This document shows positions 6,508-28,079 of a stretch of 34,339 bases of DNA, in pieces (positions within the stretch are counted from its first letter, which is position 1; each line of letters begins with the position of its first letter). Source of the DNA: Bacteroidales bacterium (GTDB lineage Bacteria; Bacteroidota; Bacteroidia; Bacteroidales; VadinHA17); contig JAGGXD010000125.1 of the NCBI GenBank assembly GCA_021163295.1, positions 1 to 34,339 of the forward strand, in the 5' to 3' direction. The translations under genes and the position numbers were made by a program. The notes under the pieces were generated by a model, which was not told the origin of the DNA, searched no databases, and worked only from the letters and a program-made list of their open reading frames with translations.

Positions 6508-6768
6508 GCGGAAAATAAATTCATGGCTGAAACTTTGAAGCATACAAGCAGAATAATTCGCATAATTTCTTAAAATGAATTTCGAACAAGGAACACCGAT
6601 TTTAGATTTTAAAAATAATCCTTGCTTAATAGAAACTTCAAAATTCGTTATTCGTTTACTTAGCGAAGCGATCTCACGAACATAATAAAAATTATTAATT
6701 TTGTGAGTAATCCTTGTTCATTATTCATCTTAACAACTATATATTTATGTATAGTCAAGTGCGAAACT
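6508..6768. other. Convergent intergenic region with nested repeats
   Basis: This 261-bp gap separates the 3' ends of fabD and the PEP/pyruvate-binding gene and has no coding signal. GAACAAGGA (6584-6592) and its reverse complement (6711-6719) bracket most of it. TAATCCTTG occurs twice in the same orientation (6616-6624, 6708-6716). The 53-bp hairpin element copy 1 (6658-6710) sits inside. Confidence 0.6.
6658..6710. repeat. 53-bp interspersed palindromic element, copy 1
   Basis: This copy aligns without gaps to 28027-28079 at 44 of 53 positions (hand count). Arms CTCACGAA (6673-6680) and TTTGTGAG (6700-6707) pair with one G-T wobble. Inside, TAATAA (6683-6688) pairs with TTATTA (6692-6697) around an AAA loop. 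It lies about 150 bp after the fabD stop. Confidence 0.75.
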
Positions 6769-9700
6769 TTAGTTATTTATGTTTCCCTTTCCGGGTTTAT
6801 AAATCACGCCCTTCCTGGTTTTTCCGTCAATAACAACAAGCAGAGGCTCAGAAAACCTTATATGCCGTATAAAGTCATCTTCATATGTGGCTTCCATATT
6901 ATCCAGAAATTTAATGTCATAATAGCCATCATTCATAAAAGGATTGATTGTAAAATATCCTACCCTGAATGATGTAAGATTCTGGAAGAAATGGGTTCCC
7001 TGGCTTGGATCGATCCTGTAGTTATCCAATCCCGATTCCACGATTACTCTTGCCTGTGATATCTGAGCCCATTTTGTGGGTATTCCCAGCCAATAATCTG
7101 TTGAGCCCCATCGTCCGGGCCCTGTAAGAATGTAATTCTTGCCCTCACTGGCAAACTTAGTATTTAATTTTTCAATGTCACCGGCAATTTTTTCATTAAA
7201 AGAAGCATCAAAAGCATCAGGTTTAACATATACAAGATCACGGATTCCATTTAATACTCCATTTCCCAGAGCAGAATCAGAAATAATGAGTGTATCTTCA
7301 CTCTTTACATCATCAAGACTAATGGATTCAAATTGTTCCTCATTAACTACCGGCCTTATTTGTAAAAAGTTAAACTCCTTAGGATATCCTTCAGGAGTAT
7401 CTATATTTACAGCAAATTCTATCTCAATAGGGTTATTCATTTGATTTTGACCAATCTCAAGAAGATCCCTGAGTATCTCAGCCAGAGGAAACGCATTGTG
7501 TTCCAGGATATTGGAAAATGTTATTACCGGGTTACCTGAACCGTAATATCCATTTCGTAAAATGTTATTCTCAAAATCGAAAGTTGAAGCCACCCATTTC
7601 AGAGTATTATCATTTTTTGCTTCCCTTATAGGTAAACTAAGAATATTAATTCCATCATCAACTGAAGGAACAAAGCTATTTATATTCATATCAAGCGCAT
7701 AATAATTCTTTTGCGACTCTCTCAATGCTAATTCCGGTGTTGATAATTGAAGAATTTTACGAGGGTATTTAGGAGAGAAGCGAAGAGTAGCACCACCATC
7801 CACAACTAATTTACCAAGTCCCATTGCAACATTGGCAATTCCATCTTCAGACTTTTCAGGTCCGATTGGATAGAAATTAAGTGACCTTGCCACACCCGAA
7901 ATTGTCGGATAGAACCGATTGTTATATTGACTCCCACAGACCTCCTGCAATATTATTCCCATTTTTTCTTCGTCAATAACGTTAGATGTTGCTGTCATAT
8001 ATGCTTTGCTGCTCTTGAAATATACCGAAGCATATACCTGTTTAATGGCATCAGCAAGCTTTGCAAGCATTACCTTCTTATCATGATGCGGAGGAATCAT
8101 GTAGGTGGAGTAAATGCCTGCAAACGGCTGATAATGTGAGTCTTCTAATTTACTTGAAGACCTTACAGCGATAGGGATATCTCCCGATACCTTAAGGAAG
8201 GCTTTTATATCAAGGTAAATCCAACCGGGTAATTTAGCTTTTGTAAAAGCTTGAAGTATATCATTATCGTCAAGATCAGACAGTCCAATTTTGTACAGAT
8301 CGTTATTCTCCATAAATTCATCAAAGACATCGGTGCATAAAACCACTGTTCTTGGAATAGTAATCACAACATCTTCATATTTACTAAAAAGTTTTTTATC
8401 CTTTATAAGAGAATTGACAAAAGCAAGTCCTCTCGCTTTCCCCCCTATTGAACCATCGCCTACTCGTGAAAAAACAGAATACTTATCATATGTTGTCCTC
8501 TCAAATTTTGCAATAACTCCACGCCCTTTACCCAAACGAAAGCATGATATTGACACGTCTAAAAATTTCCTGATCCCATCAAGCGAGCCGAAATCGTCCG
8601 TATGCAAATACTTGAACATTTGTGCAATTGGGAACAATGCTCTTGCATTCAACCATTTTGAAAAATGATCACGGCTTGTATGATACTCAAGGCATTGATC
8701 AGGGATACTCATAAGAATCTGCTGGAATTCCTGGAGGTTTGCAGCCCTTGCAATCTCCTTTTTCGTGTCAGGATCACGGAAAATAAAAGATCCAAAAGCC
8801 AGATTATGTATTATAAAATCCCGGAGTTCAATTGAAAGGTTTTTTGAATACTTGTATAAAAAATCCACATTCATTTCTATGGCAATCCTCTTATACTTAT
8901 TGTCGGAAGATTGCAGAACAAATGGCATGTTCACATTATCTTTCTTTACAAGTTTACATAACTTTATTCCCGCTTCAACGTCTCTTATTCCTTTTCGATT
9001 GAAAGTAATATCCGAAATGATACCGAGAACATTTTCTTTGTATTTCTCATATAATTCAACAGCTTCTTCGAAATTTGTTGCAAGTAGGATCTTTGGTCTG
9101 CCCCTCATTCTCATCATTATCTGGTGTTCATTCAAAGCTTCCTGCTGAAACTCTTTTGACTGATTAAGAATAATCGTGTACAAATTGGGCAGATAGGAGG
9201 ATACAAAACGAATAGAATTTTCAACAAGAATAATAGATTGAACACCTATTTGAAGAATATCATATTCAGCGTTCATTTTATCCTCAATAAGCTTAATTAT
9301 AGCTAGTAACAGGTTCGCATTACCAAGCCAGGAAAAAACATAATCAATGGCACTAAGATCACTTTTTTTAATCTGTACTGAAACTTCACGCGAAAAGTAT
9401 GCTAAAATTACAATAGGTATATTTATATATTCTCTTTTTATTTGCCTGCTTAATTCAAAAGTATCCATTTCCCCTTTGCCCCACATTGTAATAACAAGAT
9501 CAATTTTTTCATTCTCTAAACGATGAAAGGCTTCCTCTATATTATCTACCTGAATAAAAACCGGCGGATACCGTAAATTCAGAGACACATATTCAATAAA
9601 TATCTGTTCATCAATCCTCCCATCTTCTTCGAGCATAAAAGCATCATAATTACTACAAACTAATAATACTTTATGAATCCGGGTTTGCATCAACAAATCA

Positions 9701-9801
9701 AAGGAGGTATCACTGAAGTCAAATCCATAAGATTCTATTATCCCATGATTATCAGCGCATTCAGAGTTATTGGTTTGTATTTGGTTATTATCTTTACTCA
9801 T
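6769..9801 (-). CDS. PEP/pyruvate-binding ATP-grasp protein with N-terminal receiver-like domains
   Basis: A 1010-residue protein from the ATG at 9801 (an in-frame TTG at 9816 is less likely; AGGA precedes the ATG). Residues about 42-165 and 185-345 look like two receiver-type alpha/beta domains; the first has no clear phospho-aspartate (VITMWGKGEMD), the second has SDITF with Asp264. Residues about 440-820 form a PPDK/PEP-synthase N-terminal ATP-grasp domain: GGKARGLAFV (454-463), AVRSSSKLEDSHYQPFAG (545-562) and EIEFAVN to LQIRPV (794-818). The last 190 residues, with GPGRWGSTDYWLGIP and DPSQGTHFF, form a domain I cannot name. The phosphohistidine swivel domain and PEP-utilising barrel of true PEP synthase are absent, so it should not be called PEP synthase. 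It follows korAB on the same strand, behind a terminator. Confidence 0.85.
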   Translation of the reverse strand: MSKDNNQIQTNNSECADNHGIIESYGFDFSDTSFDLLMQTRIHKVLLVCSNYDAFMLEEDGRIDEQIFIEYVSLNLRYPPVFIQVDNIEEAFHRLENEKIDLVITMWGKGEMDTFELSRQIKREYINIPIVILAYFSREVSVQIKKSDLSAIDYVFSWLGNANLLLAIIKLIEDKMNAEYDILQIGVQSIILVENSIRFVSSYLPNLYTIILNQSKEFQQEALNEHQIMMRMRGRPKILLATNFEEAVELYEKYKENVLGIISDITFNRKGIRDVEAGIKLCKLVKKDNVNMPFVLQSSDNKYKRIAIEMNVDFLYKYSKNLSIELRDFIIHNLAFGSFIFRDPDTKKEIARAANLQEFQQILMSIPDQCLEYHTSRDHFSKWLNARALFPIAQMFKYLHTDDFGSLDGIRKFLDVSISCFRLGKGRGVIAKFERTTYDKYSVFSRVGDGSIGGKARGLAFVNSLIKDKKLFSKYEDVVITIPRTVVLCTDVFDEFMENNDLYKIGLSDLDDNDILQAFTKAKLPGWIYLDIKAFLKVSGDIPIAVRSSSKLEDSHYQPFAGIYSTYMIPPHHDKKVMLAKLADAIKQVYASVYFKSSKAYMTATSNVIDEEKMGIILQEVCGSQYNNRFYPTISGVARSLNFYPIGPEKSEDGIANVAMGLGKLVVDGGATLRFSPKYPRKILQLSTPELALRESQKNYYALDMNINSFVPSVDDGINILSLPIREAKNDNTLKWVASTFDFENNILRNGYYGSGNPVITFSNILEHNAFPLAEILRDLLEIGQNQMNNPIEIEFAVNIDTPEGYPKEFNFLQIRPVVNEEQFESISLDDVKSEDTLIISDSALGNGVLNGIRDLVYVKPDAFDASFNEKIAGDIEKLNTKFASEGKNYILTGPGRWGSTDYWLGIPTKWAQISQARVIVESGLDNYRIDPSQGTHFFQNLTSFRVGYFTINPFMNDGYYDIKFLDNMEATYEDDFIRHIRFSEPLLVVIDGKTRKGVIYKPGKGNINN

Positions 9802-9884
9802 CGTTATTCCTGCCAATTAGTATATATGTGAAAACAATTAATAATAAAAATAACAGATTTCTTTCAGAATGCCTAATTACTTAC

Positions 9885-10013
9885 TCGCTATCGCTCGTGT
9901 TATTCCGTCTCTGCTCTCTTCTCTTTATCGGCCAGTCGTCCCCTCTCACCCAGTCGCCTCGTCGTTCTTCCTTCCGACTCTGCCAAAAACACCTGCGGCG
10001 CACTCTGGCAGGT
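9885..10013. other. C-rich, G-poor GC island between korB and the PEP-binding gene
   Basis: In an otherwise AT-rich gap the + strand from about 9885 to 9990 is dominated by C and T (repeated TCGCT, TCGTC, CTCTC motifs). It ends with a possible hairpin, ACCTGC (9991-9996) and GCAGGT (10008-10013). Open frames through it look non-coding. It resembles the degenerate pyrimidine tracts elsewhere in the window but is richer in C. The promoter of the PEP-binding gene probably lies between here and 9802. Confidence 0.5.
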
Positions 10014-10033
10014 CTATTGTATGTTTATTGGAT

Positions 10034-10064
10034 AAAAAAAAGCTGCCTCCGGTTTTGAGACAGC
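10034..10064 (-). terminator. Rho-independent terminator after korB
   Basis: Read on the minus strand, an 8-bp stem GCTGTCTC / GAGGCAGC (10064-10057 with 10049-10042, one wobble) closes a 7-nt loop and is followed by eight Ts (10041-10034). It lies 27 bp after the korB stop and should separate korAB from the next gene. Confidence 0.88.
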
Positions 10065-10090
10065 ACTTCAAACTTTAGGCATTTCTTTTA

Positions 10091-11107
10091 TTACAATTCC
10101 CAGGTGTTTCCACTATTTAACAGATCATCAACACACTTAATCTCCGCTTTTGCTCTTATTTCCTCCATCTGATGGTTTACATCATAATCATATGTCTCTG
10201 CATCAACACATCTGATAATACCAAGTACAACAGGATAATCAGGATAACGCATGTTTGCCAGCATCAGATGTATTCCCGGATTCACTTCCTCTGCATTATG
10301 GATCAATAAATCATCTTCGGTTATCCCATCCTCACCAATCTTAACAACCTTTAATTTATTATCTTTCAGAATGATACCTTTATCGTTATCTTTCCCAAAG
10401 ATCATTGGTTCATTATGGTGCAGAATTAATTGTCTGTTTCCCTTCTCCTCTTTATCAGTAAGGTAACTATATATTTTATCATTGTATATAACGCAATTCT
10501 GAAGCACTTCAACTACAGAAGTCCCTTTATGTTTTCCTGCCTGGATATAAATTTCAGTAGACAATTTAACATTACTGTCAATTGTTCTGGCAAAGAATTT
10601 TCCCTGAGCACCGATTACAAGTTCTCCGGGATGAAAAGGTTCTTCGACTGTTCCATATGGTGATGTTTTAGTTACGAAACCCTTGTATGAGGTAGGTGAA
10701 TATTGTCCTTTAGTAAGACCATATATTTGATTATTGAAAAGTATGATATTTATATCAACATTTCTCCTGATAACATGAATAAAATGATTCCCTCCAATAG
10801 CAAGGGCATCTCCATCGCCTGTAATTTGCCATACACTTAATTCAGGGTTAGCAATTTTTACACCCGTGGCAATAGCCGAAGCCCGTCCATGAATTCCATG
10901 AAATCCATATGTGTCTAAATAATATGGGAAGCGGGACGAACAACCAATACCTGAAATAAATGCGAAATTCTCTTTTGGAACATCCAGTTCAACCAGGGCA
11001 CGCTGAATCGCATTCATAATAGCATGATCCCCGCATCCCGGGCACCAGCGGGCTTCCTGATCACTTTTCAAATCTTTAACTGTGAGTTTATGTGTTATAT
11101 CAGACAT
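10091..11107 (-). CDS. korB: 2-oxoacid:ferredoxin oxidoreductase, beta (TPP) subunit
   Basis: A 338-residue thiamine-diphosphate-binding subunit of a 2-oxoacid:ferredoxin oxidoreductase, most like the 2-oxoglutarate type. WCPGCGD (residues 21-27) gives Cys22 and Cys25, and Cys56 in SGIGCSSRFPYY is a third likely iron-sulfur ligand. The TPP/Mg motif is GDGDALAIGGNHFIHVIRRN (about 97-116) with NNQIYGLTKGQYSPTS following. It pairs with korA, which ends one base before its start, so translation is probably coupled. The complex would oxidise 2-oxoglutarate or a related oxoacid to the acyl-CoA, reducing ferredoxin. Substrate choice is inferred from similarity. A strong terminator follows it. Confidence 0.92.
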   Translation of the reverse strand: MSDITHKLTVKDLKSDQEARWCPGCGDHAIMNAIQRALVELDVPKENFAFISGIGCSSRFPYYLDTYGFHGIHGRASAIATGVKIANPELSVWQITGDGDALAIGGNHFIHVIRRNVDINIILFNNQIYGLTKGQYSPTSYKGFVTKTSPYGTVEEPFHPGELVIGAQGKFFARTIDSNVKLSTEIYIQAGKHKGTSVVEVLQNCVIYNDKIYSYLTDKEEKGNRQLILHHNEPMIFGKDNDKGIILKDNKLKVVKIGEDGITEDDLLIHNAEEVNPGIHLMLANMRYPDYPVVLGIIRCVDAETYDYDVNHQMEEIRAKAEIKCVDDLLNSGNTWEL

Positions 11108-11108
11108 T

Positions 11109-12953
11109 TTATTTATCCTCCAAAATTTTATTGATGTTCTTTTTCAATTCAATCACGGTAAAAGGAAGTCCCTGTATCTTATTATACTGATAGTACTTGA
11201 ATTCCTGATGTTTCATTCTGAGATAATCAGCAAACTGTCCCATGTTCAATTCACAAACCACTATTTTCTTAAACTTTCTAAAAACATCTCCGGTATTTTT
11301 TGGGAGTGGCCGGATGTAATTAAAATGGGCAAGACTAACTTTTCTCCCCTCTTCCCTCAACTCATTTACCGCTGTAATAAGGTGTCCGTATGTGCCACCC
11401 CAGCCAACAACAAGAAGATTGCCATCTTCACCCCCTTCCACTTCAAGCTCAGGTATAAAATTAACGACATTTTCGACTTTTTTATCTCTTATCTTTATCA
11501 TTTTCTCATGATTCTCAGGATCATGAGAAACATTACCGGTAATAAAATCTTTTTCCAACCCACCAATTCTGTGTTCAAGACCTTTTGTGCCGGGCAGTGC
11601 CCATGTTCGTGCAAGCCTCTCAACATCTCTCGCATAAGGTTCCCAGTCTTTTATGCCTTCTTTTACAATAGGAGGTTTAATATCAGGATAATCTGCCATT
11701 TTGGGGATTCTCCATGGTTCAGTCCCATTAGCCAGGAAACCATCTGACATTAAAATAACAGGGGTCATATGTTCAAGGGCAATCTTTGCAGCTTCAAATG
11801 CATATTGGAAACAATTAGTAGGAGTACTTGCAGCCATAACCACTACAGGACATTCGCCACTTCTTCCATATAATACCTGCCAAAGATCAGCCTGCTCGGT
11901 TTTTGTAGGTAGTCCGGTCGAGGGACCACCTCTTTGCACATTAATAATTACAATAGGAAGTTCAGTTATCACAGCCAGTCCTATAGATTCAGATTTTAAA
12001 GCCAGTCCGGGACCTGAAGTTGTTGTTACACCAAGTTTCCCAGCAAAACTCGCTCCAATAGTTGTACATATCCCCGCAATTTCATCCTCAGCCTGAAAAG
12101 TAATAGCTCCCAGGTCACGCCTAAGTGCCACCTCTTCCAGAATACTGGTAGCCGGAGTTATCGGGTAAGAACCAACATATACACTTAGTCCGGCTTTTTC
12201 TGCAGCTGCCAGGACGCCCCAGGCTACAGCAGTATTTCCATTGATATTACGATATTTTCCTTTTTCAATTTCAGCCCGGCTAATATTATAGGGACATAAA
12301 GCCTCTACAGTTTCAGCATAATAATAGCCGGCTTTAAGTACTTTTTTATTGGCTTCAACAACCAACGGTTTTTTCCTGAATTTCTCTTTAAAAAAGTTTT
12401 CAGTATAGTCAAGCGATTTACCAAATAGCCAGTAAACCATACCCAATGCGAACATGTTTTTTGTTCGTAAGATACTTTTTCTATCGAGGTCTGTATCCTT
12501 GAGCACTTCTTTAGTCATATTGGTAATCGGGGCTTCAACTACCATAAATGCGTCTAAAAATTCCTTGCCAATCGGATTTGAATCAAATCCCGCTTTTTCA
12601 ATTCCTTTTTCATCAAAATTATCAATATCCAGTATAATCACCCCTCCCTGCTTAACCCATTTTAAATTTGCTTTAAGAGCAGCCGGATTCATTGATACCA
12701 AAACATCAGCAAGATCTCCGGGAGTTTTTATTTCCGAATGTCCTACATGAACCTGAAATCCGGAAACTCCTCCCACTGTGCCTGAAGGTGCACGGATCTC
12801 TGATGGATAATCAGGAAATGTTGACATATAGTTACCGAATAAAGCTGCTGTGTTCGAGAAAAGAGTTCCTGTGAGTTGCATCCCATCGCCAGAGTCTCCT
12901 GAGAACCTGATAACCATTTCGTCACGTTCAACAACTTCGGGTTTTTTATTCAT
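11109..12953 (-). CDS. korA: 2-oxoacid:ferredoxin oxidoreductase, fused gamma-alpha subunit
   Basis: A 614-residue protein with the gamma domain (about 1-195, starting with the FSGDSGDGMQLTG motif) fused in front of the alpha pyrimidine-binding domain (about 225-500) and a C-terminal transketolase-like domain. SYPITPATSILEEVA and TTTSGPGLALKSE are the alpha-subunit signatures, as in KorA/VorA enzymes. The gamma-alpha fusion is the usual arrangement in Bacteroidota and many anaerobes. No separate ferredoxin-like delta subunit is nearby. With korB it would yield acyl-CoA, CO2 and reduced ferredoxin, in an oxidative or partly reductive TCA path. The 296-bp upstream gap holds its promoter, but I see no clear box. 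Confidence 0.93.
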   Translation of the reverse strand: MNKKPEVVERDEMVIRFSGDSGDGMQLTGTLFSNTAALFGNYMSTFPDYPSEIRAPSGTVGGVSGFQVHVGHSEIKTPGDLADVLVSMNPAALKANLKWVKQGGVIILDIDNFDEKGIEKAGFDSNPIGKEFLDAFMVVEAPITNMTKEVLKDTDLDRKSILRTKNMFALGMVYWLFGKSLDYTENFFKEKFRKKPLVVEANKKVLKAGYYYAETVEALCPYNISRAEIEKGKYRNINGNTAVAWGVLAAAEKAGLSVYVGSYPITPATSILEEVALRRDLGAITFQAEDEIAGICTTIGASFAGKLGVTTTSGPGLALKSESIGLAVITELPIVIINVQRGGPSTGLPTKTEQADLWQVLYGRSGECPVVVMAASTPTNCFQYAFEAAKIALEHMTPVILMSDGFLANGTEPWRIPKMADYPDIKPPIVKEGIKDWEPYARDVERLARTWALPGTKGLEHRIGGLEKDFITGNVSHDPENHEKMIKIRDKKVENVVNFIPELEVEGGEDGNLLVVGWGGTYGHLITAVNELREEGRKVSLAHFNYIRPLPKNTGDVFRKFKKIVVCELNMGQFADYLRMKHQEFKYYQYNKIQGLPFTVIELKKNINKILEDK

Positions 12954-21053: not shown

Positions 21054-21078
21054 ATAGCAATAAATTTACTTTTAATAA

Positions 21079-21744
21079 CTAAATATTCAGAAAACGCATA
21101 AATGATTCATACCGGTTGTTATAAAAGCTATCCATATTTTGATCTTCCATATATGAAGCCTTAATATTATAATTATACCGATTCAATGTTTGAACAATAG
21201 ATGTCAGGTCGGTGCGGTTAATCTTGAGAGTAACCTCAAGCTTAGTTGATTGATCCGGAGAAGTCACATAAGCACTCAAAATCTTCGCATCATTACTTTC
21301 AACTATCTGTGCAATATGAGTCAATGAGTAGTCATTTTGATTAAGTTCAAGTACAATTAATCCCCCCGGGTCTTTCAAAGCAGACATTTCGGCAAAATGA
21401 TATAACAACTCATTCATTGTTATCAATCCCAGATATTGTTTCTTTTCATTTAAAACCGGCACAACCGTAAGACGATTTTCAGCTACAAGTTTCATCACAT
21501 CATAAATATGTTGGTCATTCACCACATAAGGACTAAATAAGGATAACTTATGATTACCAATAGGTTCATCAGCCATATTCAGATCATAGATATCGGTATC
21601 AGAAATCAGACCAAGAAACTCCCGGTTATTTACAATGGGCAAATGAGAGATCCGGAATATTTCCATCCAGCTCAATGCCCGTAAACCTGTATCAGAGGTT
21701 TTCAACGCAGGGACAACATCAGATAATAAATCTTTTGCCAACAT
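21079..21744 (-). CDS. CBS-domain protein with ACT-like C-terminus
   Basis: A 221-residue cytoplasmic protein with a CBS pair and no membrane segment. The first CBS motif covers about 1-60 (LPIVNNREFLGLISDTDIYD), the second about 75-115 (LTVVPVLNEKKQYLGLITMNELLYH). Residues about 128-205 look like an ACT-type domain (LIVLELNQNDYSLTHIAQIV, then ILSAYVTSPDQSTKLEVTLK). CBS pairs bind adenine nucleotides, so regulation by AMP, ATP, NAD or similar is plausible, and the adjacent nadK is suggestive. No enzymatic domain is fused. It is divergent from pdxJ. The exact role is unknown. Confidence 0.85.
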   Translation of the reverse strand: MLAKDLLSDVVPALKTSDTGLRALSWMEIFRISHLPIVNNREFLGLISDTDIYDLNMADEPIGNHKLSLFSPYVVNDQHIYDVMKLVAENRLTVVPVLNEKKQYLGLITMNELLYHFAEMSALKDPGGLIVLELNQNDYSLTHIAQIVESNDAKILSAYVTSPDQSTKLEVTLKINRTDLTSIVQTLNRYNYNIKASYMEDQNMDSFYNNRYESFMRFLNI

Positions 21745-21775
21745 TACTCATATATTGAAAAAACAATTAATTTTG
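21744..21775 (+). promoter_or_regulatory. Promoter candidate for pdxJ
   Basis: A perfect -7 box TAATTTTG (21768-21775) has a weak -33 partner TTAC (21744-21747) 20 bp upstream. The predicted start is about 45 bp before the ATG at 21826. The divergent CBS gene begins at 21744, so the -33 element touches its first codon. Confidence 0.4.
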
Positions 21776-21825
21776 TAGTTAAAAATACAACTTTTTAAAT
21801 CCATTACGAAAGTATAAATGATTTT

Positions 21826-22551
21826 ATGACACGTTTAAGTGTAAATATAAACAAAATTGCTACTCTAAGAAATGCCCGTGGAGGAAATATACCAGATTTG
21901 TTAAAAGCAACTACCGACTGCCAAAGATTTGGAGCACAAGGCATTACTATTCATCCCAGACCAGATGAAAGACATATCCGCTACCGGGATGTAACAGATA
22001 TTAAACCATTAATCACAACTGAGTTAAATATTGAAGGATATCCATCAGATAGATTTCTTAAGCTTGTTTTACCGGTAAAACCACATCAGGTGACATTGGT
22101 TCCGGATTCTCCCGGAGTACTTACTTCAAGTGCCGGGTGGGATACAATAAAGAATAAATCGTTTTTAAAGGATGTAATTGGCATTTTGCAAAATGAAGGT
22201 ATCAGAACATCAATTTTTGTTGATGCTGAACTTCATATTATTGAGAATGCGGTGGATACCGGCACAAACAGAATTGAACTTTATACTGAACCATATGCTT
22301 CAAAATACTCTAATAACAGGGAAGAAGCAATTAAACCTTTCTGTATTGCTGCCGAAAAGGCAAATGAGTTAGGACTGGAGTTAAATGCAGGACACGACCT
22401 GAATCTGGATAATCTGACTTTTTTCGTTCAAAAAATCCCTTCACTGAAAGAGGTGTCAATCGGGCATGCTCTGATCTCAGATGCTCTTTATTTCGGACTT
22501 GAAAACACAATTCAAATGTACCTGAGAAAAATTAAAATGGCACCTCATTAA
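21826..22551 (+). CDS. pdxJ: Pyridoxine 5'-phosphate synthase
   Basis: A 241-residue TIM-barrel enzyme that condenses 1-deoxyxylulose 5-phosphate with 3-amino-1-hydroxyacetone phosphate in de novo vitamin B6 synthesis. [20 protein letters not shown] at the N-terminus, [18 protein letters not shown] (about 45-62), [17 protein letters not shown] and the late [14 protein letters not shown] and [13 protein letters not shown] are all diagnostic. Length is normal. It is divergent from the CBS-nadK pair and convergent with udk; no other B6 gene is nearby. The assignment is firm. Confidence 0.97.
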
Positions 22552-22617
22552 CGATAGCCATCGACGATTTGTGCCGTTAAAAAGTTTTAAGAAATCAGGG
22601 AATAGTATAATTCGAAG

Positions 22618-23250
22618 CTAAAGCTGCAATTTGCCGGATGATCTTGAAAGATTTCTCTCAATAATAGAGGTTAAAATATTGATAGCAACCTTATTATTTC
22701 CACCCTGTGGCACAATTATATCAGCAAATCTTTTTGACGGTTCAATAAACTGAAGATGCATTGGTTTTACTGTCTTTTCGTAACGTTCAAGCACCTTATC
22801 AACAGAACGTCCACGCTCAATAATATCTCTTTTAATTACGCGGGCTAACCGGTCATCTGCATCTGCATCAACAAATACCTTTATATCCATCATTTCTCTA
22901 AGCTTTTTGTCAGTAAGTATCATTATTCCTTCAACAATAACCACATGTTTTGGTTGTAACTTTACTGTTTCACCAGCTCTTGTACATGTAAGGTATGAGT
23001 AAATCGGCATATTAATTATTTCACCATTTTTCAGCTTTTTAAGATGATTTATCAGTAATGGAAATTCAATTGAACCCGGGTGATCAAAATTAATCTCCTG
23101 TCTTTGTTCAATAGGAAGATGACTGTTATCCTTGTAATATGAATCCTGAGGCACCACAACCACTTCGTCATCCGGAAGTTTTCCAATAATTTTTTTAACT
23201 ACAGTTGTTTTTCCTGAGCCGGTGCCTCCGGCAATTCCAACAATTAACAT
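22618..23250 (-). CDS. udk: Uridine kinase
   Basis: A 210-residue uridine/cytidine kinase of the pyrimidine salvage pathway. The P-loop is GGTGSGKTT (residues 8-16). VVPQDSYYKD (about 34-43) and NFDHPGSIEF (about 54-63) form the nucleoside site, and KVFVDADADDRLARVIKRDI with the ERGRSVDKVLERY region completes the lid and fold. It faces pdxJ tail to tail and is divergent from manA across a 71-bp AT-rich spacer that must hold both promoters. The assignment is firm. Confidence 0.96.
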   Translation of the reverse strand: MLIVGIAGGTGSGKTTVVKKIIGKLPDDEVVVVPQDSYYKDNSHLPIEQRQEINFDHPGSIEFPLLINHLKKLKNGEIINMPIYSYLTCTRAGETVKLQPKHVVIVEGIMILTDKKLREMMDIKVFVDADADDRLARVIKRDIIERGRSVDKVLERYEKTVKPMHLQFIEPSKRFADIIVPQGGNNKVAINILTSIIERNLSRSSGKLQL

Positions 23251-23321
23251 TTTTTTTTAATTTTACTCAATAATTTTTTTAAACCTTTACCAAAATACTA
23301 AATTAATTAAGAAATTAAAAA

Positions 23322-24302
23322 ATGGACTTTTTATATCCTCTAAAATTCAAACCTGTTTTTAAAGAAAAGATCTGGGGAGGCAACAAATTAAATACTATCC
23401 TTGGGAAAAATTTGCCTCAAAACAAGAAAATTGGCGAGAGTTGGGAGATTTCGGGAGTTAAAGATAACATTTCTATTATTTCAAATGGCCAACTGGCTGG
23501 AAATAACCTTCAGGAACTGGTTGAGATATACATGGGTGATCTGGTTGGAGATAAAGTTTTTGAAAAATTCGGAATCGAATTTCCATTGCTTGTAAAGTTT
23601 ATTGATGCCAACAAAGTATTATCTATCCAGGTACATCCGGATAACGAACTTGCCCGCAAACGACATAATGCATTTGGCAAAACCGAAATGTGGTACATTG
23701 TTCAGGCTGATAATAATTCTGATATAATAACAGGGTTTAAACAAGAAATTAATAAGGAACAATATCAAAAATATTTCCGGGAAGGCAAGTTAACTCAAAT
23801 CCTGAATATTGAAAAAGCAGAAGCCGGAGAGGTGTTTTTTATTCCCGCAGGAAGGGTACATGCTACAGGGAAAGGGATACTCCTTGCCGAGATACAACAA
23901 ACTTCGGATATCACTTATAGAATTTATGACTGGGACAGAAAAGATAAGAACGGTAACAGCAGAGAATTACATACTGAACTTGCACTTGATGCAATAGATT
24001 TTTCCACATATGATAATTATAAAACACCCTATAATAAGACTAAAAATCAATCAGTATCTATCGCGGATTGTAAATATTTTCATACAAATATCTTAGATTT
24101 TAATGAACCCATAGAAAAAGACTATTCTCTGATTGATTCGTTTATTATTATCATGTGCCTGAAAGGCAGCCTATTAATACATACTAAGAACAACAAAGAA
24201 CAGGTTAACACCGGAGAAACTGTTTTGGTTCCTGCTTCACTGGATAATGTAATCTTTGAACCTGTGGGCGAGTCAAAAATACTTGAAGTTTTTATTCCCT
24301 GA
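23322..24302 (+). CDS. manA: Mannose-6-phosphate isomerase, type I
   Basis: A 326-residue zinc-dependent class I mannose-6-phosphate isomerase, interconverting fructose 6-phosphate and mannose 6-phosphate. It begins FLYPLKFKPVFKEKIWGG. The metal ligands appear as Gln103 and His105 in SIQVHPDN, Glu122 in KTEMWY, and His180 in PAGRVHATG. The C-terminal cupin part is shorter than in the E. coli enzyme, as is normal for the small family form. The neighbours are unrelated housekeeping genes, so its use (mannose catabolism or GDP-mannose synthesis) cannot be told from the context. Confidence 0.95.
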   Translation: MDFLYPLKFKPVFKEKIWGGNKLNTILGKNLPQNKKIGESWEISGVKDNISIISNGQLAGNNLQELVEIYMGDLVGDKVFEKFGIEFPLLVKFIDANKVLSIQVHPDNELARKRHNAFGKTEMWYIVQADNNSDIITGFKQEINKEQYQKYFREGKLTQILNIEKAEAGEVFFIPAGRVHATGKGILLAEIQQTSDITYRIYDWDRKDKNGNSRELHTELALDAIDFSTYDNYKTPYNKTKNQSVSIADCKYFHTNILDFNEPIEKDYSLIDSFIIIMCLKGSLLIHTKNNKEQVNTGETVLVPASLDNVIFEPVGESKILEVFIP

Positions 24303-24305
24303 CCT

Positions 24306-24325
24306 GAGGTGATGAGGTGATGAAG
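24306..24325. repeat. Short tandem repeat between manA and engB
   Basis: GAGGTGAT occurs twice in tandem (24306-24313, 24314-24321) followed by GAAG, just after the manA stop. Read on the minus strand it has the same pyrimidine-rich style as tracts elsewhere in the window. Confidence 0.5.
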
Positions 24326-24364
24326 TAATAAAAAGTTTAGAAGTTAATTAATAAATAGTATGCA

Positions 24365-24964
24365 GTGATTATAAAGGATGCAAAATATATTAAAAGCAGT
24401 GCGAAATTGAATCAGTGTCCGCCACCTGATTACCCGGAATATGCATTTACAGGCAGGTCGAATGTCGGAAAATCATCGCTTATAAATATGCTCACTGGCA
24501 GGAAAAAACTTGCCAAAATATCATCAACTCCGGGCAAAACAAGGACTATTAATCACTTCCTTATTAATGAAAGATGGTATCTTGTTGACCTTCCGGGATA
24601 CGGATATGCAAAAGTTTCAAGGGATATTAAGAAACAATGGAATAAAACAACAACAAACTATATTTTGAAAAGGGAGAATCTGATATGCTTGTTTGTACTT
24701 ATTGATTCACGTCACCCACCGCAAAAAAAAGATATTCAGTTTATCGAACTACTTGGACATAATAAGGTTCCTTTTGCGATAGTTTTTACAAAAACCGATA
24801 AGCTTTCCGAAACCGAATTAAAAAAGAATACTTCTAATTATGAAGAAGAACTATTAAAGCATTGGGAATTCCTTCCCAATTGTTTTAATTCTTCAACAAA
24901 GAAAAAGCTCGGGAAAAATGAAATTCTTGACTTCATTGAAGAAACTAACAAAAACTTAAAATGA
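24365..24964 (+). CDS. engB: Ribosome biogenesis GTPase EngB/YsxC
   Basis: A 199-residue GTPase of the YihA/YsxC family, which helps assemble the large ribosomal subunit. The P-loop is GRSNVGKSSL (residues 30-39), the switch II region is VDLPGYGYAKVS, the base-specificity motif is FTKTDK (about 138-143), and the late NCFNSSTKKKLG occupies the G5 position. The start must be GTG at 24365: an in-frame stop lies at 24356-24358 and the nearby ATG at 24360 reads into a stop after two codons in another frame. It is followed by the long pyrimidine-rich gap before prs. The assignment is firm. Confidence 0.95.
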   Translation: MIIKDAKYIKSSAKLNQCPPPDYPEYAFTGRSNVGKSSLINMLTGRKKLAKISSTPGKTRTINHFLINERWYLVDLPGYGYAKVSRDIKKQWNKTTTNYILKRENLICLFVLIDSRHPPQKKDIQFIELLGHNKVPFAIVFTKTDKLSETELKKNTSNYEEELLKHWEFLPNCFNSSTKKKLGKNEILDFIEETNKNLK

Positions 24965-24980
24965 CTAGAGTTTAAAGAGC

Positions 24981-25134
24981 TAATCTACTCATCTTACTCA
25001 ACTCTTCATTCTTCCAAAATGTTACGGTTTACGAGTTAAGTCTTTGCCTTTTATTCACTTCATTTCCTCATTTCCTCCTCTTCCAATTTATTTATTTACT
25101 CATTTACTCATTTCTTCACATTAGTTCACTTTAA
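24981..25134. repeat. Degenerate pyrimidine-rich repeat tract
   Basis: The gap between engB and prs is filled on the + strand by irregular repetitions of ACTCAT, TTCATT and TTCCTC words with few Gs. CTTACTCAACTC (24993-25004) recurs exactly at 31734-31745, and ACTCATTTCTTCA (25106-25118) recurs exactly at 28228-28240. No coding signal is present. Confidence 0.6.
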
Positions 25135-25145
25135 ATACTGATTAG

Positions 25146-25177
25146 TTACATTAAATAAAAAGAGATTATTAACTTTA
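25146..25177 (+). promoter_or_regulatory. Promoter candidate for prs
   Basis: A near-consensus -7 box TAACTTTA (25170-25177, one mismatch to TAnnTTTG) lies 20 bp after TTAC (25146-25149). It sits 31 bp upstream of the prs ATG, directly after the pyrimidine-rich tract. Confidence 0.35.
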
Positions 25178-25208
25178 CATCATTCAAAAATCAATCAAAT
25201 TAAAAACG

Positions 25209-26147
25209 ATGGATGGTAAACCTCCTCTTAAATTTTTTTCAGGTAGAGCCACACGTTACCTGGCAGAAAAAATTGTTAAAAGTTCCGGTAATGAGTTAGG
25301 GCAAAGTTCCGTAATGAAATTCAGCGATGGTGAATTTCAACCCTCATTTGAAGAATCTGTAAGAGGATGCAAGGTTTTTATTATTCAGTCAACTTTTCAA
25401 CCTGTAGATAATTTGTTCGAACTATTAATGATGATTGATGCTGCCAAAAGAGCCTCTGCCTACAATATCGTTGCAGTCCTTCCCTATTTCGGATTTGCAC
25501 GTCAGGACAGGAAAGACAAACCACGTGTCTCTATTGGAGCTAAGCTGGTAACAGATCTTCTTACTACGGCAGGAGTTGATCGTGTAATGACTATGGATCT
25601 TCATGCTGATCAAATTCAGGGGTTTTTCAATGTTCCGGTTGATCATATCTTTGCGTCATCACTTTTTGTTCCCTATATTAAAGATCTTAACCTTGATAAT
25701 CTGGTAATTGCAGCACCGGATATGGGTGGAACAAAACGGGCAAATGCTTACTCCAGGTTTCTGAAATGTGAAATGGTTATTTGTTATAAGCTAAGGAAAA
25801 AAGCGAATTATATTAATGAGATGCAGGTAATTGGTAATGTTAAGGACAAAAATATTATTATTGTAGACGACATGGTTGATACTGCAAGAACTCTCACTTT
25901 AGCTGCACAGATGATGATGGACAAAGGGGCAATAAGTGTCCGTGCAGCTACAACACATCCTGTTCTCTCTGGTGATGCTTATGAAAAAATCGAAAGCTCA
26001 CCTATCAAAGAACTCCTGGTAACTGATTCTATACCTCTGAAACAGGAATCAAAAAAGATTAAAGTAATCTCTGTAGCTGATGTTTTCGCTGATGTAATTA
26101 ACAAAGTTTACAATTATCAGTCAATAAGCAATAGTTTTATACAATAA
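25209..26147 (+). CDS. prs: Ribose-phosphate pyrophosphokinase
   Basis: A 312-residue PRPP synthetase, converting ribose 5-phosphate and ATP to PRPP for nucleotides, histidine, tryptophan and NAD. KFSDGEFQPSFEESVRG (about 37-53) and YFGFARQDRKDKPRVSIGAK (about 93-112) form the N-terminal half and ATP loop; TMDLHADQIQGFF (128-140) holds the catalytic region; the PRPP loop is IIIVDDMVDTARTL (216-229), with Asp220 and Asp221. Length is typical of class I enzymes. The next gene, rplY/ctc, is commonly beside prs in bacteria. A perfect -7 box lies in the gap after it, so the two are not solely co-transcribed. Confidence 0.97.
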   Translation: MDGKPPLKFFSGRATRYLAEKIVKSSGNELGQSSVMKFSDGEFQPSFEESVRGCKVFIIQSTFQPVDNLFELLMMIDAAKRASAYNIVAVLPYFGFARQDRKDKPRVSIGAKLVTDLLTTAGVDRVMTMDLHADQIQGFFNVPVDHIFASSLFVPYIKDLNLDNLVIAAPDMGGTKRANAYSRFLKCEMVICYKLRKKANYINEMQVIGNVKDKNIIIVDDMVDTARTLTLAAQMMMDKGAISVRAATTHPVLSGDAYEKIESSPIKELLVTDSIPLKQESKKIKVISVADVFADVINKVYNYQSISNSFIQ

Positions 26148-26152
26148 GTTAT

Positions 26153-26160
26153 TATATTTG
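26153..26160 (+). promoter_or_regulatory. -7 promoter box upstream of rplY
   Basis: TATATTTG exactly matches the TAnnTTTG -7 element. It starts 6 bp after the prs stop, giving a leader of about 80 nt before the ATG at 26246. No good -33 match is seen at the usual spacing. The leader contains no structure I can name. Confidence 0.5.
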
Positions 26161-26245
26161 CACCCCGTAAAAAATCAATTATTTACTAACGTGTGATGGG
26201 AGGATTGTTAATTATTCTTGAGTAGCATAATCAAATTTTAGTAAA

Positions 26246-26971
26246 ATGAAAACTATTGAGTTAAAAGGTACCATAAGAGAGGATACAGGTAAAAAATACT
26301 CCAAACAATTAAGAATGGAAGAAAAGGTACCTTGTGTAATGTATGGAGGTAAAGAAAATATTCATTTTTCTATGCCTGAACTTAGTTTTAAAAACATTGT
26401 ATATACACCAAATGTATATCTTCTTAAGATTGAAATAGAAGGAGATTTTCACGATGCAGTTATCAGGGAAGTCCAGTTTCATCCGGTTACTGATAAAATT
26501 ATCCATGCTGATTTTAAGGAATATTATCCCGATCAACCTGTAATTATTAATCTCCCGGTAAAGATTATCGGTGAGTCAATTGGCCTGAAAGCCGGAGGAA
26601 AGCTGCGTATAAGAAGAAGGGTGCTCAAAGCAAAAGGTCTTGTTAAATATTTCCCCGAACATCTTGAACTTGATATTACTGATCTTGATATTGGTCATAC
26701 AATCAGGATTGAAGACCTTAAAATTGAAGGATTAGAGTTTCTCGATTCTCCGGGAGCAATGATTGTATCAGTTGTTTCAGCTAGAGTTATCTCAAAAGCT
26801 ATGCTTACTGCTATTGAAGATATTGAAGCCAAGGAAGCAGAAGCCAAAGAGGCTATAGCAGAGCATGCTGAAGAAGAAAAAGCAGGTGAAGATAAAGAAG
26901 CAGTTGAGGGTGAAGAAAAAGAAGAAGAAAAGCCAGAAGAAAAAGGCCATAAAGAAAGCGAATCTAAATAA
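26246..26971 (+). CDS. rplY: Ribosomal protein L25 / general stress protein Ctc
   Basis: A 241-residue long-form (Ctc-type) L25, which binds 5S rRNA in the large subunit. The N-terminal domain (about 1-90) starts with IELKGTIREDTGKKYSKQLR and contains the VPCVMYGGKE and HPVTDKIIHADF motifs. The second beta domain (about 95-185) includes LPVKIIGESIGLKAGGKLRI and DITDLDIGHTIRI. Residues from about 190 form a highly charged Glu/Lys/Ala tail, disordered by composition, as often seen in long L25 proteins. Pth follows 17 bp downstream, the usual ctc-pth order, so one transcript is likely. Confidence 0.96.
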   Translation: MKTIELKGTIREDTGKKYSKQLRMEEKVPCVMYGGKENIHFSMPELSFKNIVYTPNVYLLKIEIEGDFHDAVIREVQFHPVTDKIIHADFKEYYPDQPVIINLPVKIIGESIGLKAGGKLRIRRRVLKAKGLVKYFPEHLELDITDLDIGHTIRIEDLKIEGLEFLDSPGAMIVSVVSARVISKAMLTAIEDIEAKEAEAKEAIAEHAEEEKAGEDKEAVEGEEKEEEKPEEKGHKESESK

Positions 26972-26988
26972 TCTAATAATTTTTTGTT

Positions 26989-27555
26989 TTGAAATTTCTG
27001 ATCGTTGGGTTAGGAAATTTTGGCGATGAATATCAACATACACGCCATAATATAGGATATACAATACTGGATGCTATATCTGATTTGAATAATGTTAATT
27101 TTCAGGATAAAAGATATGCTTTCAGGGGAGATTATAAATACAAAGGACGTACTTTTGTCCTGATAAAGCCTACAACTTATGTTAATCTTAGTGGTAAAGC
27201 CGTAAATTACTGGTTACAAAAAGAAAAAATACCTGTTGAAAAACTTTTAGTCTTAACTGACGACATCTCATTACCTTTCGGATCACTTAGATTAAGACCT
27301 GCAGGCGGGGATGCCGGTCATAACGGATTAAATAATATTTCAACTATTCTGGGACATAATAATTATGCTCGCCTGCGGTTTGGTATTGGTAGTGAGTTTA
27401 GTAAAGGAACTCAGGTTAATTATGTTTTAGGGAAATGGACAAATGAGGAAGAAAAACAGATCGCAGATCTTGTAAATAAGTCTGTTGAAATTATCCGGAG
27501 CTTCGGTACAATTGGAATTAAGCGCACTATGAACCTTTTTAACCGGAAAAAATAA
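26989..27555 (+). CDS. pth: Peptidyl-tRNA hydrolase
   Basis: A 188-residue Pth, which frees tRNA from peptidyl-tRNA dropped by ribosomes. The N-terminus KFLIVGLGNFGDEYQHTRHN shows Asn10 and the catalytic His20; KPTTYVNLSGKAV and DDISLPFGSLRLRPAGGDAG, HNGLNNI and RLRFGIG follow in order. The start is TTG at 26989: an in-frame stop lies at 26977 with no ATG or GTG between, and the family begins at MK(Y/F)LIVGLGN. Phe replaces the common Pro in GNPG; I recall variation here in Bacteroidota. It is 17 bp after rplY. Confidence 0.95.
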   Translation: MKFLIVGLGNFGDEYQHTRHNIGYTILDAISDLNNVNFQDKRYAFRGDYKYKGRTFVLIKPTTYVNLSGKAVNYWLQKEKIPVEKLLVLTDDISLPFGSLRLRPAGGDAGHNGLNNISTILGHNNYARLRFGIGSEFSKGTQVNYVLGKWTNEEEKQIADLVNKSVEIIRSFGTIGIKRTMNLFNRKK

Positions 27556-27599
27556 TACCGGTTAAAACTGTGTCTCACTCAATTGAAAACTAAATATAA

Positions 27600-27989
27600 A
27601 TGGTAGCTGATGGGGGGAAAATCCGGTTTGATAAGTGGCTTTGGGCAGTAAGAATTTACAAAACCCGCAGTATAGCAGCTGCAGCTTGTCGTAAAGGGAA
27701 AGTCATTATAGATAATCTGCCTGTTAAGCCATCCGGGAATGTTTCATTAGATAAAATTATTAATGTCAAAAAGCTACCTGTTATCTTCACCTACAGGATA
27801 AAAAAATTACCACTGAAAAGACTATCAGCAAAACTTGCCAAAGAATGTTTTGATGACTTAACTCCGCAAGAAGAATTTAACAAGTTAAAAATTAAAGAAT
27901 TACCCGGATTCGGTTACAGAAAAAAGGGGGAAGGCCGTCCAACAAAAAAGGAAAGAAGAATTATTGACAAGTATAATGATCCTCTGTAG
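27600..27989 (+). CDS. S4-domain RNA-binding protein (Hsp15/HslR-like)
   Basis: A 129-residue basic protein with an N-terminal S4 RNA-binding domain: IRFDKWLWAVRIYKTRS (about 8-24), AACRKGKVIIDNLPVKPSGN (about 28-47). It resembles Hsp15 (HslR), which binds stalled 50S-nascent-chain complexes. The C-terminal part is rich in Lys and Arg, including GFGYRKKGEGRPTKKERRII, which would add RNA contacts. It ends the engB-prs-rplY-pth run, 44 bp after pth, a context of ribosome maintenance and rescue that fits an Hsp15-type role. The exact substrate is inferred. Confidence 0.88.
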   Translation: MVADGGKIRFDKWLWAVRIYKTRSIAAAACRKGKVIIDNLPVKPSGNVSLDKIINVKKLPVIFTYRIKKLPLKRLSAKLAKECFDDLTPQEEFNKLKIKELPGFGYRKKGEGRPTKKERRIIDKYNDPL

Positions 27990-28026
27990 TTGCAAGAAAA
28001 CTCCAAATAACAATATACAAATCACA

Positions 28027-28079
28027 ACTTAACAAAGTGATCTCACGAACACCTTTAAAATTAATTATTTTGTGAGTAA
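28027..28079. repeat. 53-bp interspersed palindromic element, copy 2
   Basis: The same length and orientation as 6658-6710, 44 of 53 identical. The outer arms CTCACGAA (28042-28049) and TTTGTGAG (28069-28076) are fully conserved, while the loop side differs. It begins 38 bp after the stop of the S4-domain gene. Confidence 0.75.

What the first reader, a model, noticed from the sequence alone, without database searches (positions are those of the whole stretch)
6658..28079. A 53-bp hairpin element present twice with conserved arms
6658-6710 and 28027-28079 have identical length, the same orientation and 44 of 53 matching bases. The outer arms CTCACGAA and TTTGTGAG and their flanks are fully conserved, while the differences fall mostly in the middle. 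Both copies lie downstream of plus-strand genes in gene-free DNA 21 kb apart. This looks like a genome-wide small palindromic element (REP/MITE-like) with selection on the stem. The arms lack a T-run, so simple termination does not explain it.
Basis: seen in the sequence. Interest (0 to 1): 0.6.

Follow-up and report, generated by a model that had tools for sequence, protein, structure and literature searches.

The report
Tiny mobile double-hairpin DNA repeats
The two look-alike stretches are copies of a very small, probably mobile DNA element, about 26 to 55 letters long, built from two tiny hairpins and scattered through some Bacteroidota genomes; it inserts cleanly between two A's, sometimes inside the loops of other hairpins and inside copies of itself, by a machinery not yet identified.

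Summary
In detail: 6658-6710 and 28027-28079 match at 44 of 53 bases, and 100 shuffled windows contain none. The stem CTCACGAA/TTTGTGAG shows no covariation in 59 long relatives. No RAYT link: 0 of 80 Y1-transposase loci scanned carry the element.

The element is ACTTA-[hairpin 1]-GATCTCAYGA-[hairpin 2]-GARTA. The genus has 4 to 35 copies in each of 7 genomes, the family has it in 17 of 36; elsewhere in Bacteroidota it is patchy. Hairpin 1 has a GNA loop in 139 of 147 sequences; its GCGNAGC version meets a published rule for extraordinarily stable DNA mini-hairpins. Filled/empty pairs show clean insertion between A and A without target duplication. Sites include group II intron domains V and VI, a maturase gene, an apparent IS200 transposase gene, dispersed repeats and the element's own loops. 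Nested copies and a 34-nt tandem array occur.

Best reading: a non-autonomous mobile element acting as folded single-stranded DNA, mobilised in trans by an unidentified enzyme. Closest known kinds: cyanobacterial SDR elements and REPs.

The parts
6658..6709 (+). Copy 1 of the element: unit ACTTA...GAGTA, 52 nt, long form. By convention the following A (6710) is target. The preceding base is T (6657), where most copies have A.
   Evidence: unit borders from a 34-nt tandem array and from empty sites
6663..6669 (+). Hairpin 1 of copy 1, GC-GAA-GC (GNA loop mini-hairpin)
   Evidence: covariation; loop rule
6676..6708 (+). Hairpin 2 of copy 1: pairs 6676-6708, 6677-6707, then GA (6678-6679) opposite GA (6705-6706), then 6680-6704, 6681-6703, 6682-6702
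   Evidence: columns 19-55, 20-54, 23-51, 24-50, 25-49 of alignment A2
28027..28078 (+). Copy 2 of the element, unit ACTTA...GAGTA, 52 nt, long form
28032..28038 (+). Hairpin 1 of copy 2, AC-AAA-GT: outer pair changed from G-C to A-T relative to copy 1; the loop is AAA, not GNA
28045..28077 (+). Hairpin 2 of copy 2: pairs 28045-28077, 28046-28076, GA (28047-28048) opposite GA (28074-28075), then 28049-28073, 28050-28072, 28051-28071
6576..6790 (.). Dispersed host repeat around copy 1. A relative with a different, short form of the element at the same place is in L133, 77% identical over 216 nt.
   Evidence: L133 sequence
27997..28181 (.). Dispersed AT-rich host repeat around copy 2 (CAAATAACAA...TTGTTATTTG), approximate borders; found around many element copies of the genus and also without the element
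   Evidence: element-free match L164, 84% over 80 nt

Best explanation
The two copies belong to a family of very small non-autonomous mobile DNA elements (mostly 26-55 nt; commonest short form 34 nt, window form 52 nt). One strand folds into two mini-hairpins joined by GATCTC: hairpin 1 is RC-GNA-GY, and hairpin 2 is A-Y, tandem GA opposite GA, then a small or a long hairpin. SHOWN by sequence: the family is dispersed, the hairpins covary, and the unit ACTTA...RTA is inserted exactly between two A's without target duplication, sometimes in hairpin loops, in group II intron D5/D6, in genes and in other copies. INFERRED: the folded form that matters is single-stranded DNA (GNA/GNNA loops, as in extraordinarily stable DNA mini-hairpins). 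INFERRED: an enzyme acting on single strands, supplied in trans, recognises the double hairpin and inserts it at A^A in exposed single-stranded stretches such as hairpin loops. UNKNOWN: the enzyme. Once inserted, copies probably also multiply with their host repeats.
For: Dispersed: 6 copies in the own genome, genus 7 of 7 genomes with 4-35 copies, family 17 of 36 including the genus; the reversed-pattern control rang once in 60 genomes. Structure: 58 distinct short forms, 96.8% of cells paired, 47 two-sided cells against 12.5 in shuffles, 0 of 500 as high; 59 long forms, 56 against 14.9, 0 of 500. Loop GNA in 139 of 147 for hairpin 1, all four bases at N, as in the DNA mini-hairpin rule (PMC4686876, passages). 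Wobble at the Y-R pair: T-G 20 against C-A 3, as if the written strand folds. Insertion: 60 of 245 flank-joined queries have an element-free match, 52 without a gap at the junction (about 13 of the 36 with complex flanks are self-tandem artefacts). Clearest pairs: L035/L074, 98.7% over 75 nt; L132/L088 (D6), 98.4% over 63 nt; L405/L396 (homologous D5) GCGGTGA[34 nt]AAGTCGC against GCGGTGAAAGTCGC. In L087 the insert splits the GIIM maturase domain of a group II gene, profile 2-45 before and 49-74 after it. Tandem array of exactly 34 nt x3 in L249. Closing stems: 12 of 87 distinct sites score 14 or more, against mean 2.2 and maximum 6 in 200 re-pairings.
Against: Nearest-neighbour energies do not favour the short form: DNA z +1.0, 171 of 200 shuffles as good; RNA z +1.3, 193 of 200. 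That these parameters miss special GNA hairpins is a recalled caveat. The published rule asks for two G-C pairs; hairpin 1 has an A-T outer pair in 9 of 58 short and 36 of 83 long forms, window copy 2 among them, with loop AAA. Weaker covariation measures are less clear: pairs with a two-sided change, 29 and 41 of 500 shuffles as high. No strand bias to local GC skew (mean -0.004, s.e. 0.006, n 168), so the lagging-strand signature recalled for known single-strand transposases is absent. No enzyme identified. Loop preference shows only in the short form (long form 3 of 36 against 0.9, control maximum 5). One D5 insertion (L014) is in the stem strand. D5 copies share one hairpin-2 type and D6 copies another, so those are probably few old insertions inherited with the introns. 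Part of the long-form copy number may be amplification of host repeats. No recent, dated insertion was seen.
Confidence: 0.6

Rival explanations
1. RNA-mediated spread. The element moves as a small RNA that is inserted into RNA hairpin loops (such as intron D5/D6) and reverse-transcribed, as has been suggested for the cyanobacterial SDR elements (recalled).
For: Insertions sit in group II intron domains in sense orientation. GA^AA sites look like GNRA tetraloops. Nested insertions and compensatory changes resemble SDRs (recalled from Elhai 2008, not held). T-G wobble tolerance fits RNA too. Within 150 nt, the upstream neighbour gene is sense 53 times and antisense 35 times over both sets (counts; p 0.07).
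Against: No clear sense bias relative to neighbouring genes: tandem sense 27 against antisense 23 in the family set, 17 against 28 in the other set. Group II maturase domain not found in 11 of 16 carrier genomes, including those with 64 and 25 copies; other reverse transcriptases were not searched for. The loops follow the DNA rule (GNA triloops).
Confidence: 0.2
2. It is an atypical REP mobilised by a RAYT/Y1 (HUH) transposase, possibly subclass 2.6 (RAYT group 5) of Bacteroidetes, acting in trans.
For: PMC6006769 (passages) says subclass 2.6 genes, mostly Bacteroidetes, are flanked by atypical structures without GT[AG]G, with copies elsewhere in the genome. Y1 count and element count correlate weakly over 36 family genomes (Spearman 0.40, p 0.015). 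Y1 enzymes insert without target duplication (recalled).
Against: 0 of 80 Y1 loci scanned (some overlapping; not every listed Y1 hit was fetched) carry the element, including 23 loci with weak hits, mostly about 200 aa, seven of them with YIH[QN]NP. The one Y1 fragment next to an element (L119) appears to be interrupted by it. Five carriers have no Y1_Tnp match at E 0.001: G015, G024, G083, G086, G090. Among the 17 carriers the correlation disappears (0.14, p 0.58); presence 15 of 17 against 13 of 19, p 0.24. The supplementary table of the published structures could not be read.
Confidence: 0.15
3. Not mobile in itself: copies spread only as passengers of larger dispersed repeats and by recombination or replication slippage (template switching) at palindromes.
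For: Both window copies sit in larger dispersed repeats. Many long-form copies share 30-100 nt of flank. The 34-nt and 17-nt expansions (L249, L252) look like slippage.
Against: The same unit, with the same borders, is found in 87 contexts under 60% identical, in filled/empty pairs of group II introns and in a split maturase gene, and in distant genera.
Confidence: 0.13
4. A cis-acting RNA or transcription signal (terminator, mRNA stabiliser, riboregulator).
For: Both window copies lie downstream of plus-strand genes; structure is conserved; a mild excess of sense genes just upstream (53 against 35 within 150 nt, counts, p 0.07).
Against: No Rfam match in the window, no orientation bias over all neighbours within 500 nt, present within genes and introns, no T-run.
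Confidence: 0.05

Closest known systems
SDR (small dispersed repeat) elements of Nostoc and relatives (Elhai et al. 2008; recalled; cited in PMC3116915, passages seen; text not held)
   Same: As recalled: very small repeats of tens of nucleotides, common secondary structure with compensatory changes, nested in copies of themselves and in other repeats, inferred recent mobility, no encoded protein.
   Different: Different phylum (Bacteroidota) and sequence; two GNA mini-hairpins with a tandem GA/GA step; A^A insertion with filled/empty pairs; sits in group II intron D5/D6. Not compared with SDR sequences.
REP elements and REPINs mobilised by RAYT transposases (PMC3116915 and PMC6006769, passages; PMC3733652, listing only)
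   Same: Short palindromes, many copies, non-autonomous, no target duplication visible.
   Different: No GTAG/GTGG foot, two consecutive mini-hairpins instead of one stem, no RAYT flanked by copies among 80 Y1 loci scanned, insertion inside hairpin loops and genes.
Atypical structures flanking TnpA_Y1 subclass 2.6 (RAYT group 5) of Bacteroidetes (PMC6006769, passages)
   Same: Same phylum; no GT[AG]G; weak structure; copies dispersed.
Palindromic elements of Rickettsia that insert in genes (recalled)
   Same: Palindromic inserts in coding and non-coding sequence.
   Different: Recalled as about three times larger and mostly in-frame; here the 34-nt unit is not a multiple of three and breaks the maturase frame in L087.

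Membership tests
REP / REPIN (RAYT-associated) | GTAG or GTGG (or CGTC) tetranucleotide at the foot of the palindrome | tested here: not met
   Consensus ACTTA...GARTA in alignments A1 and A2 has no such foot.
REP / REPIN (RAYT-associated) | Copies flank a RAYT/TnpA_REP gene | tested here: not met
   0 of 80 Y1_Tnp loci (some overlapping, not all listed hits) carry a copy within the held flanks of up to about 1.5 kb.
REP / REPIN (RAYT-associated) | Dispersed palindrome, many copies, conserved stem | tested here: met
Subclass 2.6 (RAYT group 5) atypical structures | Same sequence as the structures listed for that subclass | not testable with these tools
   Supplementary Table S1 of PMC6006769 not readable (0 look-ups allowed).
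SDR-like very small mobile elements | Tens of nucleotides, no coding capacity, dispersed | tested here: met
   units mostly 26-55 nt
SDR-like very small mobile elements | Shared secondary structure with compensatory changes | tested here: met
   (two-sided cells: 0 of 500 shuffles as high)
SDR-like very small mobile elements | Nested within copies of themselves and other repeats; filled and empty sites | tested here: met
   L090, L097, L099, L127, L169, L249; empty sites
SDR-like very small mobile elements | Sequence homology to a described SDR family | not tested
   SDR sequences not available here.
Extraordinarily stable DNA mini-hairpins (GNA/GNNA loop, at least two G-C pairs; PMC4686876 passages) | GNA or GNNA loop | tested here: met
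   hairpin 1 loop GNA in 139 of 147; short hairpin 2 in 43 of 58
Extraordinarily stable DNA mini-hairpins (GNA/GNNA loop, at least two G-C pairs; PMC4686876 passages) | Two G-C pairs in the stem | tested here: inconclusive
   Hairpin 1 outer pair G-C in 44 of 58 short and 47 of 83 long forms, A-T in 9 and 36; met in window copy 1, not in copy 2.
Rfam RNA families | Match over gathering score | tested here: not met
   0 matches in the window
IS-derived MITE with terminal inverted repeats and target duplication | Target-site duplication | tested here: not met
   Filled/empty pairs show insertion between A and A, no duplication beyond an ambiguous A.

The most novel reading that the evidence does not exclude
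A previously undescribed class of minimal mobile DNA, down to 26-34 nt and spread patchily over Bacteroidota, that moves as a folded single-stranded double mini-hairpin (GNA loops, tandem G-A step). It is joined precisely into A^A sites exposed in hairpin loops of other nucleic acids, including group II intron domains V and VI and its own copies, by a trans-acting enzyme that is neither a flanking RAYT nor a group II reverse transcriptase.
Probability: 0.3. Interest if true: 0.8.

Novelty: new variant of a known kind. Interest (0 to 1): 0.6.

Why it matters
If confirmed, a 34-nt unit that inserts precisely and nests in itself would be among the smallest mobile elements known, and the same motif in cultured Mucilaginibacter, Pedobacter and Brumimicrobium makes it experimentally accessible. 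Filled/empty pairs with exact borders and a defined target (A^A, often in hairpin loops) turn the old question of how tiny palindromic repeats spread without their own gene into a directly testable one. The conserved GNA/GNNA loops would be a genomic counterpart of the DNA mini-hairpins found by chemists in vitro. Copies in group II intron D5 and D6 give natural insertion variants of a catalytic RNA.

Tried and rejected
RAYT association: not found; the weak correlation of Y1 number with copy number does not hold among carriers. Group II intron reverse transcriptase as the mobiliser: maturase domain not found in 11 of 16 carriers. Transcript-level function: no orientation bias over neighbours within 500 nt (ORFs of 300 nt or more taken mechanically), a mild one-sided excess within 150 nt upstream (counts, p 0.07), no Rfam family in the window. 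Strand bias relative to GC skew: none. Plasmid collection: no match. Viral contigs: one 4-kb contig. Even sampling of the phylum with 2 mismatches: 6 of 395 genomes including the own one. The five others (one hit each, 1-2 mismatches) are hardly more than the four reversed-pattern hits that I count, so the element is patchy, not universal. Literature: full-text search for five sequence strings found 0 papers. Searches on small dispersed repeats, REP in Bacteroidetes, stable hairpins and palindromic elements (listings and abstract beginnings seen) showed no description of this element. Rows dropped: loose 4-mismatch hits not starting like the element (for example L196 2723, L269 6198, L284 2466) were left out of the alignments; 59 of 89 long forms were chosen by hand for alignment A2, leaving out near-duplicates and hairpin variants of 45-46 nt; 83 of 89 entered the pair counts. 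In the empty-site test the junction of window copy 1 was mis-set at first and redone, where only a weak 30-nt element-free match was found.


Full report
OBSERVATION. The two 53-bp copies are real and beyond chance (2 matches, 0 in 100 shuffles). They differ at nine positions. The window lies in a 3.5-Mb, 272-contig genome. That it is a member of Bacteroidota is an inference: contigs of same-family genomes match named Bacteroidota MAG contigs in length and place. Neighbours are a FabD-like acyltransferase and a PPDK/response-regulator gene for copy 1, and an S4-domain gene and an acyltransferase for copy 2.

COPY NUMBER AND RANGE. A strict pattern finds 3 copies in the own genome. With up to 3 mismatches there are 6 and the reversed control has none. 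All 7 genomes of the genus carry 4 to 35 copies; the family counts 17 of 36 genomes (genus included), and 2 of 24 further genomes of the order. The control rang once over all 60. 118 of these are titled as Bacteroidota lineages, among them cultured Mucilaginibacter, Pedobacter, Olivibacter, Sphingobacterium, Gelidibacter and Brumimicrobium; one is a Geobacteraceae MAG. Eleven carriers chosen from that scan hold 1 to 64 matches with up to 3 mismatches. An even sample of the phylum gave only 6 of 395, the own genome included, with the rest at about control level. So the element is patchy: many copies in some lineages, none in most.

ANATOMY. 285 rows (144, 141, a few of them spurious) show one plan: ACTTA, hairpin 1, GATCTCAYGA, hairpin 2, GARTA. 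Hairpin 1 is GCGNAGC, ACGAAGT and the like. Hairpin 2 is short (ACGAAGT, CCGAAGG, ATAAAAT, GCGTTAGC) or long; the long form, to which both window copies belong, often begins ACACCTTT and ends TTGT. The simplest copies lack the GA step and have AC-GAA-GT or AC-GTAA-GT as hairpin 2 (L035, a 26-nt unit; L106). On 58 distinct short forms the structure pairs 96.8% of cells with 47 two-sided cells (shuffles 12.5, 0 of 500 as high). On 59 of the 89 distinct long forms it pairs 95.6% with 56 two-sided cells (shuffles 14.9, 0 of 500). Two weaker measures are less decisive: pairs with any two-sided change reach 29 and 41 of 500 shuffles, further pair types 55 and 42 of 500. Shuffles ignore relatedness, but partners slid by 1-3 columns fall to a covariation score of at most 0.086, against 0.457 and 0.401. 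The GA opposite GA is kept in 57 of 58 and 82 of 83 sequences. At the Y-R pair, T-G is found 20 times and C-A 3 times, suggesting that the written strand folds. For hairpin 1 the wobble types are not asymmetric, so this is only a hint.

WHY DNA. Hairpin 1 has a GNA loop in 139 of 147 sequences, with A, T, C and G at N; the short hairpin 2 has GNA in 43 of 58, and GNNA loops occur. PMC4686876 (passages read) describes GNA or GNNA loops with at least two G-C pairs as extraordinarily stable DNA mini-hairpins (GCGAAGC melts at 78 C). Copies with GCGNAGC meet both conditions. Those with an A-T outer pair (9 of 58 short, 36 of 83 long), window copy 2 among them, meet at most the loop condition. This loop rule is the main reason for preferring single-stranded DNA. 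Against it, nearest-neighbour energies rate the short form no better than shuffles for DNA and RNA.

INSERTION. Joining the flanks and searching the held loci found an element-free counterpart for 60 of 245 copies, 52 without a gap at the junction. By inspection about 13 of the 36 with complex flanks are artefacts of tandem copies and three repeat the same place, which leaves about 20 distinct sites. The other 24 have simple-sequence flanks. The clearest are L035 against L074 (98.7% over 75 nt), L132 against L088 (98.4% over 63 nt), L114 against L018, L202 against a second place in the same locus, and L205 against L290. In one search, L405 has group II domain V as GCGGTGA-[34 nt]-AAGTCGC where a homologous intron, L396, has GCGGTGAAAGTCGC. 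L014 has D5 and D6 inserts where the related L400 has none; the L014 D5 insert is in the stem strand. RF00029 independently recognises the D5-D6 region of L076 with its two inserts (G006:C493:2824-2968, 145 nt, over the gathering score) and, below it, L405. Other D5/D6 assignments rest on sequence resemblance. The borders are also given by the 34-nt tandem array in L249. The base before the unit is A in 49 of 51 short and 32 of 36 long distinct sites; the A after it was required by my extraction and is not an independent count. There is no target duplication beyond the ambiguous A.

TARGETS. Closing stems around the junction exceed re-paired controls (12 of 87 distinct sites at score 14 or more, control mean 2.2, maximum 6 in 200), but only in the short form (9 of 51 against 1.6, maximum 5; long 3 of 36 against 0.9, maximum 5). 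Nested copies sit in the hairpin-1 loop of another copy (L090, L097, L099, L127, L169) or at its 3' end (L025, L030, L104, L131). Genes are hit too. In the own genome (L087) an insert splits the maturase domain of a group II reverse-transcriptase gene: GIIM profile positions 2-45 upstream, 49-74 downstream. In L119 a Y1_Tnp match breaks off (profile 3-89 of 121) just before an element, and the piece after it gave no match, so that gene appears interrupted. Both window copies lie in larger dispersed repeats (6576-6790, 27997-28181). L133 carries a different, short form at the place of copy 1. For copy 2 there is an element-free match in L164 (84% over 80 nt). For copy 1 only a weak 30-nt one was found.

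MECHANISM. Neighbouring genes within 500 nt show no consistent orientation bias (tandem sense/antisense 27/23 and 17/28); within 150 nt upstream there is a mild sense excess, 53 against 35 (counts, p 0.07). Local GC skew shows no strand preference. RAYT/Y1 genes: 0 of 80 loci scanned carry the element. Y1_Tnp is unmatched in carriers G015 and G024 and in G083, G086 and G090. Copy number and Y1 number correlate weakly in 36 genomes (0.40, p 0.015) but not among the 17 carriers (0.14, p 0.58). PMC6006769 (passages) reports that Bacteroidetes subclass 2.6 Y1 genes are flanked by atypical structures lacking GT[AG]G. Their sequences were not readable here, so trans-mobilisation by such an enzyme remains open. 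The group II maturase domain was not found in 11 of 16 carriers; other reverse transcriptases were not searched for. I therefore commit to: mobile, structured single-stranded DNA, mobilised in trans by an unidentified single-strand enzyme (0.6 for the whole statement; about 0.85 for mobility of the unit alone, about 0.65 for DNA rather than RNA).

COMPARISON AND NOVELTY. It works like the very small nested SDR elements of cyanobacteria (recalled; cited in PMC3116915, passages; the paper itself not held) and is REP-like in habit. It fails the REP tests that could be run (foot motif, RAYT flanking). A search of 5.39 million open papers for five sequence strings found none; subscription papers and supplements were not searched. 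I rate it a new variant of a known kind. Neither changes the odds.

Noticed in passing
L076, L132, L014, L137, L405 (group II intron D5/D6): Copies in D5 have a CCGAAGG-like hairpin 2 and those in D6 GCGTTAGC, in several genomes; D5 stems differ but stay paired. This suggests old inserts inherited and spread with introns that stayed active.
   Followed up: partly
L119 (G019:C38 about 4005-4305): An IS200-type Y1 transposase match breaks off at an element inserted at a GA^A site; the piece behind it gave no Pfam match.
   Followed up: partly
L087 (G000:C25 about 8062) and L088 (G000:C237 about 32215): In the window's own genome two further copies lie in group II intron material: a 34-nt insert splitting the GIIM domain of a reverse-transcriptase gene, and a D5-like hairpin with an uninterrupted D6 beside it.
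   Followed up: partly
L359 (G093:C55): Tandem array of about 28-nt units TACTCACTAAGCGAAGCG... in a MAG labelled Chitinophaga pinensis, built on the same GCGAAGC mini-hairpin.
   Followed up: no
L252 (about 5223 on the minus strand): Run of a 17-nt unit GCGAAGCGATCTCATGA, an expansion of half an element.
   Followed up: no
L188: Copies with hairpin 2 GCTTGC lie inside two mechanically called open frames, 33 nt long and so frame-preserving.
   Followed up: no
L176, L193, L220, L221, L253 and other Sphingobacteriaceae loci: Copies follow a hairpin ending in AAAGTAACCAAA or similar, a separate dispersed repeat.
   Followed up: no
G006: 9 of 35 listed copies lie within about 110 nt of a contig end: repeats break the assembly, so copy counts are lower bounds.
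   Followed up: no
L226: A long-form copy in a Geobacteraceae MAG, the only non-Bacteroidota title among the 119 stretches; binning error not excluded.
   Followed up: no
L037, L078, L082, L164: A CCTGCCCCGTTTTTTTCGGGG-like hairpin is inserted at the same point (CTCAC^GAAC) of the element in several copies, a second inserted hairpin type.
   Followed up: no
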